From assembly GCA_021780415.1 (NCBI GenBank), contig JAJXYW010000110.1, positions 1 to 7,100 on the forward strand: DNA of 7,100 bases, given 5' to 3'. Under the pieces are notes generated by a model, which saw only the letters and a list, made by a program, of their open reading frames with translations, had not been told where the DNA came from and did no database searches. The DNA comes from Acidobacteriota bacterium (GTDB taxonomy: Bacteria; Acidobacteriota; Terriglobia; Terriglobales; Acidobacteriaceae). Shown here one piece after another: positions 253-7,100 of the stretch (position 1 is the first letter of the stretch; each line of letters opens with the position of its first letter). The translations under genes were made by a program, and so were the position numbers.

Positions 253-1944
253 CTAACTCGCCTTCTCCTCGTGATACTCCTGCTCCGAATTAATCCCCCA
301 CACCGCATCTTTATCGACATATCCCGCAGCAATCCCATCCACCACCGCCATCGCCGTCAGCATCGAGTGGTCCTGATTGTTGTACTTATGCATTCCATTC
401 CGTCCCACCAGAAACAGGTTCTCAAACCGGTCCATCCACGCGCGCAACTCCTCAAAGCGGTCATACGTTCCAAAGTAGGCCGGATACGTCTTCGGCACGC
501 GCACCACATGCGCATCCAGCACCTCAGCCGTCTTCAGAATCCCGATCTTCTCCAACTCCCCCGCCGCAAACTTCTTCAACTCCTCATCCGGCATCGACCA
601 CAGCGCATCCGTCTCATAGCAGAAATACTCCAGCCCAATCCAGACCTTTGTCGGATCGGCCACCATATACGGGCTCCAGTTATTAAAAATCTGCAGCCGC
701 CCCAGCAGCACATCCGGCTCCTGAATATAAATCCACGTGTCCTTGATCAGCGTCTTATCCGACTCCGTAACATCCAGCTTATTCGCCAGCACCCCCACCG
801 TAATAAAGTCCCGATACTGTAACCCTTCGCTCACCTCGCGCACGTTCTCCGGAACCTCCACCTTCAGCGCCCGCACCAGATCCCGCATCGGCATCGTCGA
901 AAGAAAATAATCCCCCTCAAAACGCCGCAACTCTCCCGTCTCATTCACCGCCTCCACCGCCACCACCCGCGCACTCTCAACCTCCACCCCAACCACCTTC
1001 CACCCCATGTGGATCTCGCCGCCCATCGCGGCCACCTTCTCCGCAACATGCTCCCACAACTGCCCCGGCCCGAACTTCGGATACAGAAACCTCTCAATCA
1101 GCGAAGTGTCCGTTCCCTTTTGCGCAATATCTTTCCCACCTTCACCCTTCGGACTCCGCGAAAACATCTTCTTCACAAAATGTTTCAGCGCAGTCGTCAA
1201 GCTCAGCCCTTTAATTCTCTGCGCCCCCCACTCCGCCGAAATCGTATCGCAAGGCGTCCCCCACACCTTCTCCGTATAGCTCTTGAAGAACGTCAAATAC
1301 AACTCGTGCCCAAAACGGTTAATCAAAAAATCCTCAAGGCTCTTCTCTTCCCTGATCGGCTTCACGCGGCTCATCGCATAACTCACGCCGATCTTCACCA
1401 TCCGCACCATCCCCAGGTTTGAAATGGTCGCCCCACCCAGCTTGATCGGATAATCGAAAAATTTCCGCAGATAATAAATCCTGCTCTTGCGCGGCCGCAC
1501 CAGCATCACCAGGTCATCGCTGGCCGGCGCAACCTCCCCCACCACCGTTACCGTCGGCACATGTTCCGCCAACTCCTCCGCACTCACCTCGTCCTGCGCG
1601 TCCACCACCTTCAGCGGCCCCATCCCGCGCAGCGGAGGCTCTTCCTCCACCCCCACCGGCACCGCCACCGTCCTCTGCTGCCCCTGATAGCTGATCTTCG
1701 CGTCACCATCGCCCGACACCACCGGCATCAGGTCCATCCACCACTGCATCACGCGGTCGCTCTTGGAAAAAAATCGGTGCCCGCCAATATCCATCCGGTT
1801 GCCCTTATACCGGATCGTCCGCGAGATCCCGCCAATCTCACCCGACGCCTCCAGCACAATCGGCTGCACGCCCGTCTTGCGCAGAAACTCCAGCGCCGCC
1901 GTCAACCCCGCCGGTCCCGCCCCAATCACAATCGCCTTCTTCAT
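253..1944 (-). CDS. FAD-dependent oxidoreductase (amine oxidase / UDP-galactopyranose mutase superfamily)
   Basis: Predicted cytoplasmic flavoprotein; its substrate is unknown. Counted from the ATG at 1944-1942 it has 563 residues. It opens with the Rossmann FAD motif [14 protein letters not shown] (residues 4-17), then IVLEAS with the ribose-binding Glu (about 32), the GGIS loop, and [13 protein letters not shown] (about 49-61). Conserved central blocks follow, such as [13 protein letters not shown] and [19 protein letters not shown] (about 225-243). The C-terminal FAD/substrate segment (about 511-540) contains [18 protein letters not shown], which resembles the GR...Y...D segment of UDP-galactopyranose mutase. 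Relatives are often labelled protoporphyrinogen oxidase or NAD(P)/FAD-dependent oxidoreductase and tend to occur among surface-polysaccharide genes, so a sugar- or lipid-modifying role is plausible but inferred. Residues about 74-144 form an acidic, poorly conserved-looking insertion. TTG at 1956 or GTG at 1953 would also be in frame, but no start has a good ribosome binding site; ATG was chosen because family members begin just before the Rossmann motif. It follows the GT-C gene on the same strand after 146 bases. Confidence 0.88.
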
Positions 1945-2090
1945 CCAGCGCACCAACTCAGCGAGCCAGCACCTCGGCCCGCACCTCTCTCTTCATCATG
2001 CATCACAGAACCGCGCCCACGCTCGATCCATCCCGCTCTCCCCCCCTCTGCACGGCAACACGCACTCAAGCAACTCTCACCTCATGGCTC

Positions 2091-3692
2091 TCATTGTCCT
2101 TGGCCAGCAACCGGTGTCTTTACCATCATCACCTCACCGCCAAACGCCTGCCCAACCGGAGTCACCTTTATCTGTCCGTTCGCAAAGGCCAGTTCCAGCC
2201 AGTTCCAGCCTCCATGCGTCACCACAAACAGGTGTTCTCCCGGCGCGCGGATCACACTCTCGTAGGGCACGATCGTGTACGGAGTGAACGTCTTTAAATC
2301 TTCAATAATCCTTGAGTCCGTCTCGGATTGAAGCCACCGCATCTCCTCGGCCTCCGAGTACACCAGCCCAAGGTGCTGCAGCGCATCCGTATCGGCGCCA
2401 TGGAATGCCACAGCTGCGAAGAGGTCTAAATCCTGCGTATAGAGCCTCTGCGTTGGACTCGCGAGGATGGCCTCCTTCACCTGCGGCGAAATCACCAGGA
2501 CCTCCCGAGCATACGCTCGATATGCGCGTTCCGCTCGCGCCACCTGCGCGCCCTTCCAAACAAATCCCACCACCAGCGAACCCAGAATCAACCAGCCCAC
2601 AACGCGAGACTCCAGCACCGGTAAAAGCGCAATCGCAAGCAGTGCTGCCATCCCAATCACGGCACCCAGCGCGTAACGTGGCTCCATTGCATGGGTCACA
2701 AAGTGGCCCAGAAGGAATACGAAAACCGGCAGTGCCGCGAGCACAAGGAGACATACGAACTCTGCATCCGGTAACCGCAGGCTTCCGCTATGCCACAAAC
2801 GAATGCACCTCCACAAAACGATCACCGTCAGCAGCAGCAACGCCAGTGCCAACACATGATTCGTCCGAACATCGAAGGCCTCCCGCCCGAACACAAAAAA
2901 GTTGTACGTCCGCGTGATCGACCGGTACGGAACATTCCCCGCCTTGTAATGCCCGCGAAACTGCAGCGCCCCCTTCAGAAACGGAATCACGAACACAATT
3001 CCCGCCACGCCTACCCCCATCGACAGCAGCATCGCAACATCCAGCCGTCGTCGCTCCCACACCCGTACGGCCTCTCCCATACACAGCGGCAACATCACCA
3101 GAACCCCGTAGTACTGCGCATTCGCCACGGCTGCAATGCTCAGTGCCAGCACCACCAACGACGCTGTACGTCCATCTTCACGCCGCGCAGCCGTCTGCCA
3201 GCTCAACATTGCCAGACCGAAAAGTCCCAGCATCACTCCATAAGGACGAATCTGGAGCGTATACCCAAAGGCAACTGTCAGCGCAGGAATCGCCATCGCA
3301 AACATCGCTGCGCGCTCCGTCGCAATGCGCCGCACAAAATAAAACAGGCAAACCTGCATCAGCAGGAAGCCGCCAATAGAAGGAAGCCTGAGAAAAAACG
3401 GCTTGATCCCAAAGATCCGAATGTTTGCGAACGTCAGGCCATGATAGAAAAATGGATCGATCACTAGCGGCGTCGTTCGTTGAATGTGTATCAACTGTGC
3501 AAGGCTTCCCACCCGGTCGCACCACAACTCCAGCAGATCATCCCCGTCCATCAACTTGTAGTGTCCCTGCACTGCCCACACCCCCGCCGTCAGCGCAAGG
3601 AACGCAACCGCCCACCACGGGAGACCCGCGATCTCAAATCGCCGATCTCTCTCGGGCCCCTCGGAAGCTTCAGATTCCAGCGGTACACTCAT
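2091..3692 (-). CDS. GT-C family glycosyltransferase, ArnT/PMT-like, polytopic membrane protein
   Basis: Predicted inner-membrane glycosyltransferase of the GT-C fold, which moves a sugar from a polyprenyl-phosphate carrier to an acceptor on the periplasmic side. The protein has 533 residues. After a hydrophilic N-terminus (1-22), the first membrane helix (about 24-42) leads into a periplasmic loop with the acidic motif DGDDLLELWCD (49-59), the place where GT-39-type enzymes carry their catalytic Asp/Glu. About nine more hydrophobic segments follow to residue 380, with conserved-looking blocks FYFVRRIA (117-124), IRPYG (148-152), QYYGVL (193-198) and FVTHAMEPRY (331-340). A soluble tail (about 390-533) contains GWNW (495-498). 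It is clearly paralogous to the plus-strand gene at 4959-6518, which shares all these blocks. ATG at 3692-3690 is preceded by GAAGGA with about 6 bases of spacing. It is transcribed away from the UbiA gene, toward the flavoprotein. Sugar and acceptor are unknown. Confidence 0.87.
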   Translation of the reverse strand: MSVPLESEASEGPERDRRFEIAGLPWWAVAFLALTAGVWAVQGHYKLMDGDDLLELWCDRVGSLAQLIHIQRTTPLVIDPFFYHGLTFANIRIFGIKPFFLRLPSIGGFLLMQVCLFYFVRRIATERAAMFAMAIPALTVAFGYTLQIRPYGVMLGLFGLAMLSWQTAARREDGRTASLVVLALSIAAVANAQYYGVLVMLPLCMGEAVRVWERRRLDVAMLLSMGVGVAGIVFVIPFLKGALQFRGHYKAGNVPYRSITRTYNFFVFGREAFDVRTNHVLALALLLLTVIVLWRCIRLWHSGSLRLPDAEFVCLLVLAALPVFVFLLGHFVTHAMEPRYALGAVIGMAALLAIALLPVLESRVVGWLILGSLVVGFVWKGAQVARAERAYRAYAREVLVISPQVKEAILASPTQRLYTQDLDLFAAVAFHGADTDALQHLGLVYSEAEEMRWLQSETDSRIIEDLKTFTPYTIVPYESVIRAPGEHLFVVTHGGWNWLELAFANGQIKVTPVGQAFGGEVMMVKTPVAGQGQ

Positions 3693-3912: not shown

Positions 3913-4962
3913 ATGCCTCACCGCGATAGCCCCAGCGTACCATTCGGCGTTCGGCTCCGTGCCCACATCGCCATCGCCCGGCTCGACCACTCCATCAAGA
4001 ATCTCTTCGTCCTGCCCGGCGTCATCATACCTCTCAGCGTCGACCCGGCACTCTTCAATCTCCACCTCGTCCGCACCCTCGTCCTGGCTTTCATCTCCAT
4101 CACGCTCGTAGCCTGCAGCAACTACGTCATCAACGAAGTCCTCGACGCCCCCTTCGACCGCCTCCACCCCATCAAGAAGAATCGTCCCGCCGCCCGCGGC
4201 CTCGTCAGCATCCCGGCGGCCTACATTCAATGGCTGCTCATGATGGTCGCCGGCATCGCCATCGGCCTCACCATCTCCAAAATGTTTGCCCTCATGGCGC
4301 TTGTCCTCTGGATCATGGGCTGTGTCTACAACTTCCCGCCCATCCGCACCAAGGACGTCCCCTACCTCGACGTACTCACCGAATCCATCAACAACCCGCT
4401 CCGCATGTTGCTCGGCTGGTACGCCGTCACCATCGTCCTCATCCCGCCCGTCTCGCTCCTCATCGCCTACTGGATGATCGGCTGCTACTTCATGGCCCTC
4501 AAGCGCTTCAGCGAACTCTCCGAGCTCCAACGCTCCGGCGACCACGCCCTCGCCGGCTCCTACCGCGCCTCCTTCAAGCGCTACACCTCAGAGTCCCTCC
4601 TCGTCTCCGTCGTCTTTTACGCCTCCACGGCCATGCTCTTCCTCGGCGCCTTCATCATCCGCTACCGCATCGAGCTCATCCTCGCCTTCCCCTTCGTCGC
4701 CTTCACCATGGCCATCTATCTCAAGCTCTCCTTCAAACCCGAAAGCGCCGTCCAGAACCCCGAGAAGCTCTACCGCGAGCCACTCCTCATGGCCTCCTTT
4801 CTCTCCACCGTTCTCGTCATGGGACTGCTCCTCTTCATCCGCATGCCGCGCCTCGAAGAGTTCTTCATGCCCACCATCCCCACCTCAACGTCCTCTCCGA
4901 CATCGCACCTGCAGCCTGGTCCACTCCACACGCCGCTCTCATCGGAGAAACTCCCTGCATGA
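3913..4962 (+). CDS. UbiA-superfamily prenyltransferase, decaprenyl-phosphate phosphoribosyltransferase-like
   Basis: Integral membrane protein of 349 residues. Its closest recognisable relatives are decaprenyl-phosphate phosphoribosyltransferases (mycobacterial Rv3806c/UbiA), which join phosphoribosyl pyrophosphate to a polyprenyl phosphate to begin making a lipid-linked pentose donor. The first polyprenyl/Mg-binding motif is clear: NYVINEVLDAPFD (70-82), followed by HPIKKNRPAARG (85-96), the HPxKxxRPxxxG pattern of this subfamily. The second acidic region is YNFPPIRTKDVPYLDVL (139-155). The block MALKRFSEL (194-202) matches the xALxKRxxEL signature I associate with phosphoribosyltransferase members rather than quinone-type UbiA enzymes. 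About eight or nine hydrophobic helices are visible between residues 31 and 310. The tail after about residue 318 is rich in Ser, Thr and Pro and is probably disordered. A start at TTG 3841 would add 24 unlikely-looking residues; ATG 3913 has a GGAG site. Its stop overlaps the next start by 4 bases. Another UbiA substrate cannot be excluded. Confidence 0.85.
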   Translation: MPHRDSPSVPFGVRLRAHIAIARLDHSIKNLFVLPGVIIPLSVDPALFNLHLVRTLVLAFISITLVACSNYVINEVLDAPFDRLHPIKKNRPAARGLVSIPAAYIQWLLMMVAGIAIGLTISKMFALMALVLWIMGCVYNFPPIRTKDVPYLDVLTESINNPLRMLLGWYAVTIVLIPPVSLLIAYWMIGCYFMALKRFSELSELQRSGDHALAGSYRASFKRYTSESLLVSVVFYASTAMLFLGAFIIRYRIELILAFPFVAFTMAIYLKLSFKPESAVQNPEKLYREPLLMASFLSTVLVMGLLLFIRMPRLEEFFMPTIPTSTSSPTSHLQPGPLHTPLSSEKLPA

Positions 4963-6518
4963 CACCGCAGTCCAGCTCTGCTCCAACTGAGTCGACGCGC
5001 TCCTATCTCCTGCTGGCCTTCTTTCTTCTCCTCACCGCCGCGCTCTCGCTCCTCTGGTCGCACGCCCGCCTCATGTGGAACGACGAGTTCCTCTCCTTCT
5101 ACACCGACGGCGTCGCCACCTTCCGCCAGGTCATCCTCGTCCAGCTCCACCACCCCATCTCGCTCGACCCGCCCACCTACCACCTCCTCTCGCATCTCAG
5201 CATGGACCTCCTCGGCCGCAACGCCATCGCCCTGCGCCTGCCCGCGCTCGCCGGCTTTCTCCTCTTCCAGCTCTGTCTCTACTTCTTCGTCCGCCGCATC
5301 GCCGGCCCCCGCGCCGCGGTTATCGCAGCCGCCGCACCTCTCCTCACCGCCAGCTTCCGCTACTCCGTCGAAGGCCGTCCGTACGGCCTCCTCCTCGGCC
5401 TCTACGCCCTCTCACTCCTCTGCTGGCAGATCGCCGCACAAGACGACAACATCCCCCGCTCACGCATCCTCCCCCTCACCGGCCTCACTCTCTCCATCGC
5501 GCTCGCCATCACCAGCCACTACTTCGGCGTCCTCATCCTCATCCCCGTCTCGCTCGGCGAGCTCTCCCGCATCTACATCCGCAAGCGCCTCGACCTCGGC
5601 GTCCTCACCGCCCTCGCGCTAGGCCTCGCCTCCGTCGCCCTCATCCTGCCCTTCAAGCGCGCCCTCATGGTCTACCGCCAGCACTACTACATCACCGGCG
5701 TCAACCTCCACGACATCAGCCAGGGTTATCGCGAGCTCTTTCTCCGCTACACCACCTGGTCCATCCCGCTGCAAAAATTCGCTGCGGCCATCATGGTCGT
5801 CCTCGCACTGTCGCTCGCCATCGCTGGATACAAACGCTTCAAGCGCCGCCCCGCCACCGAGCCCGCCTGCACCTGGGTCGCACTCTTCGCCATGGCCCTC
5901 CTGCCCTTCTTCGGATACCTCTTCGGACGCTTCGTCACCCACACCATGGAGGTCCGCTACGTCATCGCGGCTCTCATCGCCTTCGCCGCCACCTTCGCCA
6001 TCGTCCTCGAGCGCAGGCTCCGCAGCAACACCTTCTACTTCATCGCCCTCGGCGTCCTCTTCCTCGCCGCCATCGACATCAACACCTGGAACATCCTTCA
6101 AGAGCGCCGCGCCTCCAACGCCATCCTCGCCAGCCTCCACCCCTCCCCCGCATTAGCCGCAGCACTAGACGCCAATCCCACCGCACCCCTCTACGAACAA
6201 AGTCTCGGCACTTTCTTCGTCGACTCCTTCTACACCCCTGACCCCGCTCTCCGCGCCCGCATCACCCTCCTCTATAACGCCCAGCGCGAACTCTTCTTCC
6301 TCCAGCACGACACCTACTCCATCGCCGCGGTAAACCTCCACCACTTCACCACCCTGCCCATCGCCGACTACGACCACATGCTCTCTCAACCAGGCCCACA
6401 TCTCCTCATCCAGTTGCAGGACGGCTGGAACTGGACCGACAAAGCCGCCGAGCTCGAGCACGCAACCGTGACCCCACTCGGCCCCTCCTTCGGCGCCCAG
6501 GCCGTAGCTGTCCAATAG
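4959..6518 (+). CDS. GT-C family glycosyltransferase, ArnT/PMT-like, paralogue of the divergent gene
   Basis: Predicted 519-residue inner-membrane enzyme using a polyprenyl-phosphate sugar on the periplasmic face. The first helix (about 15-33) is followed by HARLMWNDEFLSFYTD (35-50), holding the Asp-Glu pair typical of the catalytic loop of GT-39-like enzymes. Further blocks are YFFVRRIAG (108-116), GRPYGLLLG (139-147), SHYFGVL (186-192) and GRFVTHTMEVRY (323-334). A soluble C-terminal part (about 385-519) includes DGWNW (488-492). All of these align with the minus-strand protein at 2091-3692. The start is ATG 4959, within ATGA that also holds the UbiA stop; GGAGAA at 4944-4949 gives a 9-base spacing. 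The same frame is open back to 4230, but that part only shadows the UbiA gene. The overlap implies translational coupling and suggests that this enzyme uses the lipid donor pathway started by the UbiA protein, an inference from context. Its sugar and acceptor are unknown. Confidence 0.9.
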   Translation: MTPQSSSAPTESTRSYLLLAFFLLLTAALSLLWSHARLMWNDEFLSFYTDGVATFRQVILVQLHHPISLDPPTYHLLSHLSMDLLGRNAIALRLPALAGFLLFQLCLYFFVRRIAGPRAAVIAAAAPLLTASFRYSVEGRPYGLLLGLYALSLLCWQIAAQDDNIPRSRILPLTGLTLSIALAITSHYFGVLILIPVSLGELSRIYIRKRLDLGVLTALALGLASVALILPFKRALMVYRQHYYITGVNLHDISQGYRELFLRYTTWSIPLQKFAAAIMVVLALSLAIAGYKRFKRRPATEPACTWVALFAMALLPFFGYLFGRFVTHTMEVRYVIAALIAFAATFAIVLERRLRSNTFYFIALGVLFLAAIDINTWNILQERRASNAILASLHPSPALAAALDANPTAPLYEQSLGTFFVDSFYTPDPALRARITLLYNAQRELFFLQHDTYSIAAVNLHHFTTLPIADYDHMLSQPGPHLLIQLQDGWNWTDKAAELEHATVTPLGPSFGAQAVAVQ

Positions 6519-6574
6519 CCACAATCTACCCGTACTATGGAATAAAGCGCGGCTCATTGAGCGAGAGGGTTGGA

Positions 6575-7100
6575 ATGGATCACATCGGAAAGCGCCGCCT
6601 CGTCAACATCGCAGCCGCGTTGCTCCTCGCCGAGGCCGCCGCAACCTCCATCATGAAGTTCATGGCCGTGCGACGCGATCCGCTCGCCTTCGACGACGCC
6701 TACATGTTCCTGCGCTACGCGCACAACATCCGCCACGGCCTCGGCTTCTCCTGGAACCTCGACGGCGTCCACACCTACGGCCCCACCTCGCTCCTCTGGA
6801 GCTTCTGCGTCCTCCTCTTCAGCTATCTCCCCACCGACCCCTGGACGCAGCTCCTCATCGGCACCTGGCTCTTCTCCATCGCCGCGCTCATCGCCACCGC
6901 CTGGGCAGTCTCCGCCAACGCCCAAAGCGACTGGATGCGCAGCCCTCTCCGCGTCCTCGCGCTCATCGTCGTTCCCCTCGCCGGCACCGCCCTCTTTCAA
7001 GGCAATCAGTTCAACGGCATGGAAACCATGCTCGCCACCATGCTCTGCGCCTTCTTTGTCGGACTCGCTCTCCTCTGGCGCGCCGGCCGCATCTCCCCCG
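6575..7100 (+). CDS. AftB-like GT-C membrane glycosyltransferase, N-terminal part (partial)
   Basis: The first 175 codons of a polytopic membrane protein are visible; it runs off the window. A hydrophobic N-terminal segment (about 9-31) precedes FDDAYMFLRYAHNI (39-52), GLGFSWNLDG (55-64) and YGPTSLLW (68-75). This order, DDAYxxxRYAxN, then GxGxxxN, then a GxTSxLW-like block, followed by an NGMETMLA block (148-155), is the N-terminal pattern of AftB and related bacterial membrane proteins. Mycobacterial AftB is a terminal arabinofuranosyltransferase that uses decaprenyl-phosphoryl-arabinose. The adjacent Asp pair (40-41) is the expected catalytic loop of the GT-C fold. ATG 6575 is preceded by GAGAGGG at 6563-6569 with 5 bases of spacing. 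It follows the previous stop by 56 bases with no terminator, so it probably belongs to the same operon. Family resemblance is good; arabinose as its sugar is not shown, since many relatives outside actinobacteria are uncharacterised. Confidence 0.82.
   Translation, partial: MDHIGKRRLVNIAAALLLAEAAATSIMKFMAVRRDPLAFDDAYMFLRYAHNIRHGLGFSWNLDGVHTYGPTSLLWSFCVLLFSYLPTDPWTQLLIGTWLFSIAALIATAWAVSANAQSDWMRSPLRVLALIVVPLAGTALFQGNQFNGMETMLATMLCAFFVGLALLWRAGRISP

What the first reader, a model, noticed from the sequence alone, without database searches (positions are those of the whole stretch)
3913..7100. Mycobacterial-like UbiA plus AftB-type gene set in a non-actinobacterial-looking genome
A UbiA protein with phosphoribosyltransferase-type motifs (NxxxNExxDxxxD, HPxKxxRP, ALKRFSEL) is translationally coupled to one GT-C enzyme and followed by an AftB-like one. 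In mycobacteria ubiA (Rv3806c) and aftB (Rv3805c) are neighbours in arabinogalactan synthesis. Here the same pairing has an ArnT/PMT-like GT-C inserted between the two, with no other mycobacterial wall gene visible. This suggests an uncharacterised polyprenyl-phosphate pentose pathway decorating a surface glycan, lipid or protein.
Basis: partly seen in the sequence, partly recalled or inferred. Interest (0 to 1): 0.7.

Follow-up and report, generated by a model that had tools for sequence, protein, structure and literature searches.

The report
Acidobacterial pentose-lipid donor gene cluster
A soil bacterium of the Acidobacteria carries a distant relative of the enzyme that tuberculosis bacteria use to load a five-carbon sugar onto a membrane lipid, paired with enzymes that probably pass that sugar to something outside the cell, which points to an undescribed sugar decoration in a common group of soil bacteria.

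Summary
The window is Acidobacteriaceae (Granulicella-like). UbiA and its ATGA-coupled GT-C partner are real and conserved. UbiA is not a quinone or heme enzyme: it keeps 9 of 12 PRPP-contacting residues named for Rv3806c, including the 5'-phosphate ligands K28 and Y70, which no sampled quinone or heme UbiA keeps. It is no Rv3806c orthologue either: it forms its own starred clade (98/99) and misses every curated cut-off. Distant members on Rhizobium plasmids sit in UbiA-HAD-GtrA operons, the logic of the 2024 three-component pentofuranose systems. Most relatives' genomes also carry a HAD-UbiA fusion and DprE1; these are contiguous with DprE2 in two genomes lacking this UbiA, and at least 217 kb away in eight genomes where distance is readable. 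So two polyprenyl-phosphate-pentose routes probably coexist, this one perhaps delivering unepimerised ribofuranose. 'AftB-type' is weakly supported: Foldseek ranks AftB first, but the AftB profile does not match and the gene is in 6 of 37 loci. The coupled GT-C is ArnT-like. Product, phosphatase, flippase and acceptor are not shown. New variant of a known kind.

The parts
3913..4962 (+). UbiA-fold protein, predicted PRPP-dependent polyprenyl-phosphate phosphoribosyltransferase of a separate subfamily, no HAD domain
   Evidence: PF01040; PRPP-site residues; tree
4959..6518 (+). GT-C glycosyltransferase, ArnT-like fold, start overlaps the UbiA stop (ATGA)
6575..7100 (+). 5' part of a second kind of GT-C protein (about 560 aa in its homologue; ORF opens at TTG 6557), cut by the window end
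2091..3692 (-). second GT-C gene, paralogue of the coupled one (34% identity), opposite strand
   Evidence: a minus-strand GT-C upstream of UbiA also in L005, L006 and L007
253..1956 (-). FAD-dependent UDP-galactopyranose-mutase-like protein (PRK07208.1-2 equivalog); neighbour, membership in the pathway not shown
   Evidence: 831 bits, cut-off 418; best PDB match UDP-galactopyranose mutase 4dsg, 5.6e-13; its cluster occurs in 19 of 37 loci

Best explanation
The window encodes the donor-making and donor-using parts of an extracytoplasmic pentofuranosylation system. Step 1 (inferred from residues, fold family and gene company): the UbiA protein transfers 5-phosphoribose from PRPP to polyprenyl phosphate on the cytoplasmic face. 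Step 2 (inferred, enzyme not found in the locus): a phosphatase removes the 5'-phosphate; distant members of the subfamily have a HAD gene beside them, and in most acidobacteria examined it could be the HAD domain of the separate HAD-UbiA fusion acting in trans. Step 3 (inferred, gene unknown): the lipid is flipped, as GtrA would do in the Rhizobium version. Step 4 (inferred from fold and translational coupling): the ArnT-like GT-C, and in some strains further GT-Cs, transfers the pentofuranose to a periplasmic or surface acceptor. The likeliest sugar is unepimerised ribofuranose, because the epimerase pair DprE1/DprE2 goes with another UbiA; arabinofuranose is not excluded.
For: Of the 12 PRPP-contacting residues named for Rv3806c (PMC10994848 section 10), 9 are kept in 21 of 21 subfamily members: R22, K28, Y70, N73, D77, K87, R90, Y138, K143. 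Among seven quinone, heme or AfUbiA rows, Y70 and K87 are in 0 of 7 and K28 in 0 of the 6 that have a letter there. Best profiles are PRK08238 at 88.9 and PRK12324 at 80.5 bits; the next family is at 39.4. Best PDB match is Rv3806c, 2.2e-11. Distant members: UbiA-HAD-GtrA in 3 of 3 Rhizobium plasmids opened, of 19 Rhizobium records matched; [HAD plus degenerate UbiA plus long membrane region]-UbiA-GtrA in Rhodobacter; membrane protein-UbiA-HAD in Subdoligranulum. A long membrane ORF flanks UbiA in 34 of 43 loci against 237 of 1512 random positions; the scan missed the coupled GT-C of L001 and of the window, which scored only through its minus-strand GT-C. HAD-UbiA, DprE1 and DprE2-like genes are contiguous in G029 and G059, genomes without this UbiA. 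Where this UbiA shares a contig with HAD-UbiA or DprE1 (8 genomes: 7, G035), the distance is at least 217 kb.
Against: No biochemistry. Q135 becomes G and Y157 becomes N in 21 of 21, so the pocket differs; K208 becomes Y where the alignment is unsure. All curated cut-offs are missed. With three clades the tree cannot by itself say that this one is nearer to the PRPP enzymes than to the others; the split from other UbiA has support 80/36. No phosphatase or flippase was seen in the acidobacterial loci read; GtrA is in 1 of 6 genomes. The Rhizobium HAD shows no detectable similarity to HAD-UbiA. 26 of 30 subfamily-positive genomes also have a DprE1 homologue, and in the 60-genome set the two co-occur more than expected (Fisher 0.007, uncorrected for kinship), so an arabinose product stays open. 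Not every member has a GT-C neighbour (L019, L030, L036).
Confidence: 0.6

Rival explanations
1. The UbiA protein is a redundant phosphoribosyltransferase that feeds the DprE1/DprE2 pair, so the GT-Cs here add arabinofuranose, as in mycobacteria.
For: DprE1 homologue in 26 of 30 subfamily-positive genomes (15 of 17; 11 of 13); positive association in the 60-genome set. GT-Cs here match ArnT, AftA and AftB folds.
Against: Four positive genomes lack a DprE1 homologue: G004, G006, G028, G068 (assemblies may be incomplete). In the 8 genomes where it shares a contig with HAD-UbiA or DprE1, this UbiA lies at least 217 kb away. All 36 DprE1-positive genomes of 60 have the HAD-UbiA fusion, which is contiguous with DprE1-DprE2 in G029 and G059.
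Confidence: 0.22
2. The UbiA protein moves a different phosphorylated sugar from its pyrophosphate donor onto polyprenyl phosphate; the changed ribose-side residues mark a new donor.
For: Q135 to G and Y157 to N in 21 of 21; N at position 157 and E at position 74 are in no row outside this clade. HAD neighbours fit any phosphosugar.
Against: 5'-phosphate and pyrophosphate ligands K28, Y70, R22, K87, R90, Y138 and K143 are kept in 21 of 21. Position 135 is T in all 21 HAD-UbiA rows, the architecture of the proven Citrobacter enzyme (whose own residue I did not see), so it seems not fixed in PRPP enzymes.
Confidence: 0.12
3. An ordinary aromatic or lipid prenyltransferase (quinone, heme or archaeal-lipid type) that happens to lie beside GT-C genes.
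For: UbiA fold; the stretch around YNFPPIRTKDVPYLDV resembles AfUbiA (4tq3 is a weak PDB hit).
Against: Relatives' genomes already have MqnP-type and CtaB paralogues. The Y70, K87 and R160 equivalents are absent from 7 of 7 such proteins, and K28 from the 6 with a letter there, and all are present in 21 of 21 here. Heme o synthase scores 31.3 and chlorophyll synthase 32.3 bits on the window protein.
Confidence: 0.06

Closest known systems
Three-component pentofuranose systems, Citrobacter youngae O1/O2 (Kelly et al. 2024, PMC11127046; abstract, sections 5, 7, 12 part 1 and passages read)
   Same: PRPP-type UbiA enzyme making a polyprenyl-phosphate-pentose used by a GT-C enzyme outside the cytoplasm
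   Different: Theirs has the phosphatase fused to UbiA and a MATE flippase in the locus; here UbiA is single-domain from another clade and no phosphatase or flippase is in the window. Their GT136 enzyme was not compared here
Rv3806c decaprenyl-phosphate phosphoribosyltransferase (8j8j; PMC10994848, passages and section 10 read)
   Same: UbiA fold, 9 of 12 named PRPP contacts, a GT-C gene nearby
   Different: Separate clade; Q135 and Y157 changed; no PAP2 gene in the window, unlike the Rhodococcus plasmid cluster L141
HAD-UbiA fusion PRK08238 (NF006088), a paralogue in relatives' genomes
   Same: same inferred chemistry
   Different: has its own phosphatase domain and sits with DprE1/DprE2 in some genomes; the window protein scores 88.9 against a cut-off of 351
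AftB, GT89 (NF041481; PDB 9dlh)
   Same: third gene's full-length homologue has AftB as its best Foldseek match and a similar N-terminal DDxxxxxRxxxN stretch
   Different: no NF041481 match reported with the limit at E 10
ArnT (PDB 5ezm, 5f15)
   Different: 14% identity; donor and acceptor unknown

Membership tests
Decaprenyl-phosphate phosphoribosyltransferase equivalogs (PRK12324 models) | score above the curated cut-off | tested here: not met
   80.5 against 234; 73.9 against 207; 63.4 against 474
PRPP-dependent polyprenyl-phosphate phosphoribosyltransferases (broad) | PRPP-contacting residues of Rv3806c | tested here: met
   9 of 12 named residues in 21 of 21 members; Q135, Y157 and K208 differ
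PRPP-dependent polyprenyl-phosphate phosphoribosyltransferases (broad) | placed inside the known enzymes in a tree | tested here: not met
   separate clade 98/99 beside HAD-UbiA + NoeC-like + DPPR 98/96; not inside the quinone or heme rows sampled either
PRPP-dependent polyprenyl-phosphate phosphoribosyltransferases (broad) | activity with PRPP and polyprenyl phosphate | not testable with these tools
   needs an in vitro assay
HAD-UbiA PRK08238 | HAD domain and score over 351 bits | tested here: not met
   single-domain UbiA, 88.9 bits
Three-component pentofuranose system | GT-C enzyme with the UbiA enzyme | tested here: met
   ATGA-coupled GT-C, ArnT-like model
Three-component pentofuranose system | phosphatase domain or gene | tested here: inconclusive
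   none seen in the window or in acidobacterial loci read; HAD neighbour in Rhizobium, Rhodobacter and Subdoligranulum
Three-component pentofuranose system | flippase gene | tested here: inconclusive
   GtrA in 1 of 6 genomes; MATE and EamA not searched genome-wide
AftB / GT89 | match to NF041481 | tested here: not met
   no match reported with the limit at E 10 for 3 of 3 full-length homologues scanned (filters drop most weak matches); the window's own copy is cut and gave none at 0.001
AftB / GT89 | AftB-like fold | tested here: inconclusive

The most novel reading that the evidence does not exclude
Many Acidobacteriaceae run two parallel polyprenyl-phosphate-pentose pathways: a HAD-UbiA/DprE1/DprE2 route to a D-arabinofuranose donor, and the window's separate UbiA clade making a D-ribofuranose (or other pentose) donor for a variable set of ArnT-like and AftB-like GT-C enzymes, giving pentofuranosylated envelope glycans, lipids or proteins not described for this phylum in the papers I could search. 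The window's UbiA clade would be a second, separately diverged PRPP lipid-phosphoribosyltransferase family, reaching from Acidobacteria to Rhizobium and Rhodobacter plasmids and one clostridial record.
Probability: 0.45. Interest if true: 0.7.

Novelty: new variant of a known kind. Interest (0 to 1): 0.5.

Why it matters
The mycobacterial enzyme is called an attractive drug target (abstract of PMC10994848), and lipid-linked pentofuranose donors were put on a general footing only in 2024 (PMC11127046). A separate clade of the first enzyme in a common soil phylum, tied to ArnT-like transferases and usually present beside a DprE1/DprE2 route, makes it directly testable whether Acidobacteria make ribofuranose- or arabinofuranose-containing envelope glycans. 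It also shows a gap in curated families: where a source named the listed homologues, the names are mostly 'decaprenyl-phosphate phosphoribosyltransferase' or '4-hydroxybenzoate polyprenyltransferase'.

Tried and rejected
Whole genome of the window: not available, so genome statements are about relatives.

PF04030 as a DprE1 probe gave proteins that I judged from their sequence to be other oxidases (recalled family features); replaced by PF01565 plus NCBIfam and NF053785. 'DprE1 homologue' in the genome counts means a match with E under 1e-90 (322-464 bits); none of the 60 or 13 genomes reaches the 500-bit cut-off. The threshold is mine; the next matches listed are at about 1e-15 or weaker.

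HAD of Rhizobium against HAD-UbiA: no significant similarity. GT-C profiles against each other: none; coupled GT-C profile against Rhodococcus AftB: none. Profile of the third gene against PDB sequences: nothing meaningful up to E 10. VIA-align listings without a family are not counted as absence.

Viral contigs: 56 stretches matched a pattern, 0 encoded a relative. A first neighbour scan with a stricter threshold gave 25 of 46 against 107 of 1032; the version used (34 of 43 against 237 of 1512) left out three short truncated loci (L002, L007, L008) and lowered the threshold after I saw that the first had missed known GT-C genes, so it is descriptive.

Tree rows: 56 sequences collected (one HAD-UbiA locus, L132, gave none), 7 dropped as near-copies, degenerate or odd before the tree of 49; 2 dropped for the residue table of 54. 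Long branches meet in that tree, and E. coli UbiA and AfUbiA are poorly placed.

Acceptor clues from neighbours: alaS, recX, an amidase, lpxC and clpB homologues, taken as housekeeping and not informative. Papers: no held paper combined decaprenyl-phosphate phosphoribosyltransferase, UbiA and Acidobacteria; one search gave one paper on sulfatases and one on a fungus (listings only); only PMC11127046; two searches were read as listings only.
Full report
What is there. The window holds five genes of interest: an FAD gene (253-1956, -), a GT-C gene (2091-3692, -), UbiA (3913-4962, +), a GT-C gene (4959-6518, +) whose start overlaps the UbiA stop as ATGA, and the first part of another GT-C gene (from 6557 or 6575, +) cut by the window end. 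No tRNA was found. The source is an acidobacterium close to Granulicella: the UbiA is 88% identical in Granulicella sp. L46, and named protein hits are Acidobacteriaceae.

Conservation. A scan of genome contigs gave 36 loci, 33 with acidobacterial record titles. By called ORF ends, UbiA and the GT-C overlap by four bases in 17 of 37 loci (36 plus the window, truncated ones included). In a crude scan a long membrane ORF lies directly beside UbiA in 34 of 43 loci (38 loci of the acidobacterial kind and 5 plasmid loci) against 237 of 1512 random positions in the same loci. The scan missed the coupled GT-C of L001 and of the window because of open frames running far upstream; the window was counted only through its minus-strand GT-C. 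Loci without such a neighbour by eye are L019, L030, L034 (a family-2 glycosyltransferase next door), L036 and the three Rhizobium plasmids. The neighbour is not always the same family: ArnT-like in the window's kin; a family with DUF6798 matches at or just under the cut-off in L033, L151 and L154 (L151 and L033 46% identical); membrane proteins without a Pfam match in L152, L023 and L146, whose GT-C nature is not shown. The AftB-like third gene is in 6 of 37 loci.

What UbiA is. Profile scores point to the PRPP enzymes: PRK08238 88.9 and PRK12324 80.5, 73.9 and 63.4 bits, then 39.4 and below; PDB best match Rv3806c at 2.2e-11. All are below the curated cut-offs. PMC10994848 (section 10) names R22, K28, Y70, N73, D77, K87, R90, Q135, Y138, K143, Y157 and K208 of Rv3806c around PRPP. 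In the alignment of 54 proteins nine of these are identical in 21 of 21 window-type, 21 of 21 HAD-UbiA, 4 of 4 DPPR-type and 1 of 1 NoeC-like rows. Of seven MqnP, CtaB, E. coli UbiA and AfUbiA rows, none has Y70 or K87, none of the 6 with a letter there has K28, and none has R160, a further arginine shared by the other groups that is not a named contact. Q135 is G and Y157 is N in all 21 window-type rows; position 135 is T in all 21 HAD-UbiA rows, so that site seems to vary among PRPP enzymes. K208 aligns to Y, unsurely. The tree of 49 proteins gives a starred window-type clade (98/99) and a starred clade of HAD-UbiA, NoeC-like and DPPR proteins (98/96); the split of these two from the other UbiA is 80/36. 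Three clades meet in one node, so nearness to the PRPP enzymes rests on the residues and scores, not on the tree. The tree does keep it outside the quinone and heme rows sampled.

Gene company of distant members. A plasmid search found relatives in 55 records; of the 30 listed in spread order, 11 cover at least 79% of the query at 38-43% identity: 9 Rhizobium, 1 Rhodobacter, 1 Subdoligranulum. Three of three Rhizobium records opened show UbiA, HAD hydrolase and GtrA overlapping or 2 bases apart. Rhodobacter sp. CZR27 has an 885-aa protein (HAD, a UbiA region under the Pfam cut-off that matches PRK08238 at 275.8 bits, and a long membrane region), then the UbiA, then GtrA. A Subdoligranulum record has a 595-aa membrane protein, the UbiA, then a HAD protein. 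Phosphatase plus flippase plus membrane transferase is what the published pathway needs after a phosphoribosyl transfer (PMC11127046: abstract, sections 5, 7 and 12 part 1, and passages). The Rhizobium HAD is not detectably similar to HAD-UbiA. In the acidobacterial loci read no phosphatase is beside the gene, and GtrA was found in 1 of 6 genomes searched.

The rest of the genome. The window's own genome is not held. In four relatives (genomes of L001, L010, L013 and L036) PF01040 finds four UbiA genes each: MqnP-type, CtaB, window-type and HAD-UbiA (one MqnP-type and one CtaB scanned, the rest by sequence); three of the four HAD-UbiA were scanned and are over the PRK08238 cut-off at 567-587 bits. 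DprE1 homologues (335-355 bits, cut-off 500; one compared with PDB, DprE1 at 1e-73) are in three of the four, each followed by an SDR; the two scanned score 206-209 against the DprE2 cut-off of 250 and over the cut-off of PRK07102. In 60 genomes of the order, a DprE1 homologue (322-464 bits, none over the cut-off) is in 36, HAD-UbiA in 38 and window-type in 17. All 36 DprE1 genomes have HAD-UbiA (Fisher 2e-14); window-type is also associated with HAD-UbiA (0.017) and DprE1 (0.007); none of these is corrected for kinship. HAD-UbiA, DprE1 and a DprE2-like gene are contiguous in G029 and G059 and HAD-UbiA lies 1.4 kb from DprE1 in G017; these three lack the window-type gene. In the 8 window-type genomes where it shares a contig with HAD-UbiA or DprE1 it is at least 217 kb away. 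Of 30 window-type genomes (17 here, 13 more), 28 have HAD-UbiA and 26 have DprE1; G006 and G028 have neither, G004 and G068 have HAD-UbiA only. So arabinofuranose donor synthesis looks like the job of HAD-UbiA with DprE1/DprE2, and the window UbiA is a second enzyme that usually co-occurs with it. Incomplete assemblies could explain some absences.

Verdict. Best reading: a donor-synthesis and transfer cassette of the three-component type with a UbiA from a new clade. Shown: genes, coupling, residues, clade, co-occurrence. Inferred: PRPP as donor (about 0.8 in my judgement), dephosphorylation, flipping, ribofuranose as the sugar (about 0.45), and an extracytoplasmic acceptor (about 0.85). Not found in print for this phylum in searches and the listing of 106, which cover only the held open-licence papers.

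Noticed in passing
window 253-1956: FAD protein whose best solved relative is UDP-galactopyranose mutase (4dsg, 5.6e-13); its cluster is in 19 of 37 UbiA loci. In the Rhodococcus plasmid cluster a glf gene also lies near the DPPR gene.
   Followed up: partly
L006 14678-21023, L009 5269-11709, L004 9502-13073: Tandem arrays of further genes of one GT-C-like cluster (two members scanned match PMT_2) beside the UbiA operon; L012 11067-15975 has several paralogues of the coupled GT-C in a row. The GT-C content of this island varies strongly between relatives.
   Followed up: no
L025 10001-12007: UbiA and GT-C read as one 668-aa open frame in a metagenome assembly with ambiguous bases; a frameshift error is as likely as a fusion.
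   Followed up: no
L138 7275-9932: 885-aa Rhodobacter protein joining a HAD domain, a UbiA region scoring under the Pfam cut-off and a long membrane region, directly upstream of a window-type UbiA and GtrA.
   Followed up: partly
L155 9181-12883 and L156 6718-10404: Contiguous HAD-UbiA, DprE1-like and DprE2-like genes in acidobacterial genomes: a complete predicted polyprenyl-phosphate-arabinofuranose route outside Actinobacteria (L156 by ORF sequence).
   Followed up: partly
L148 1046-6124: Cyanobacterium Kovacikia minuta plasmid: DPPR-type UbiA followed by DprE1-like and DprE2-like genes, with a large membrane protein upstream (the two Dpr names judged from sequence).
   Followed up: no
L141 5881-7752: Rhodococcus AftB homologue (NF041481, 785.7 bits against a cut-off of 1050) is annotated in its record as 'flagellar motor control protein ZomB'.
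   Followed up: no
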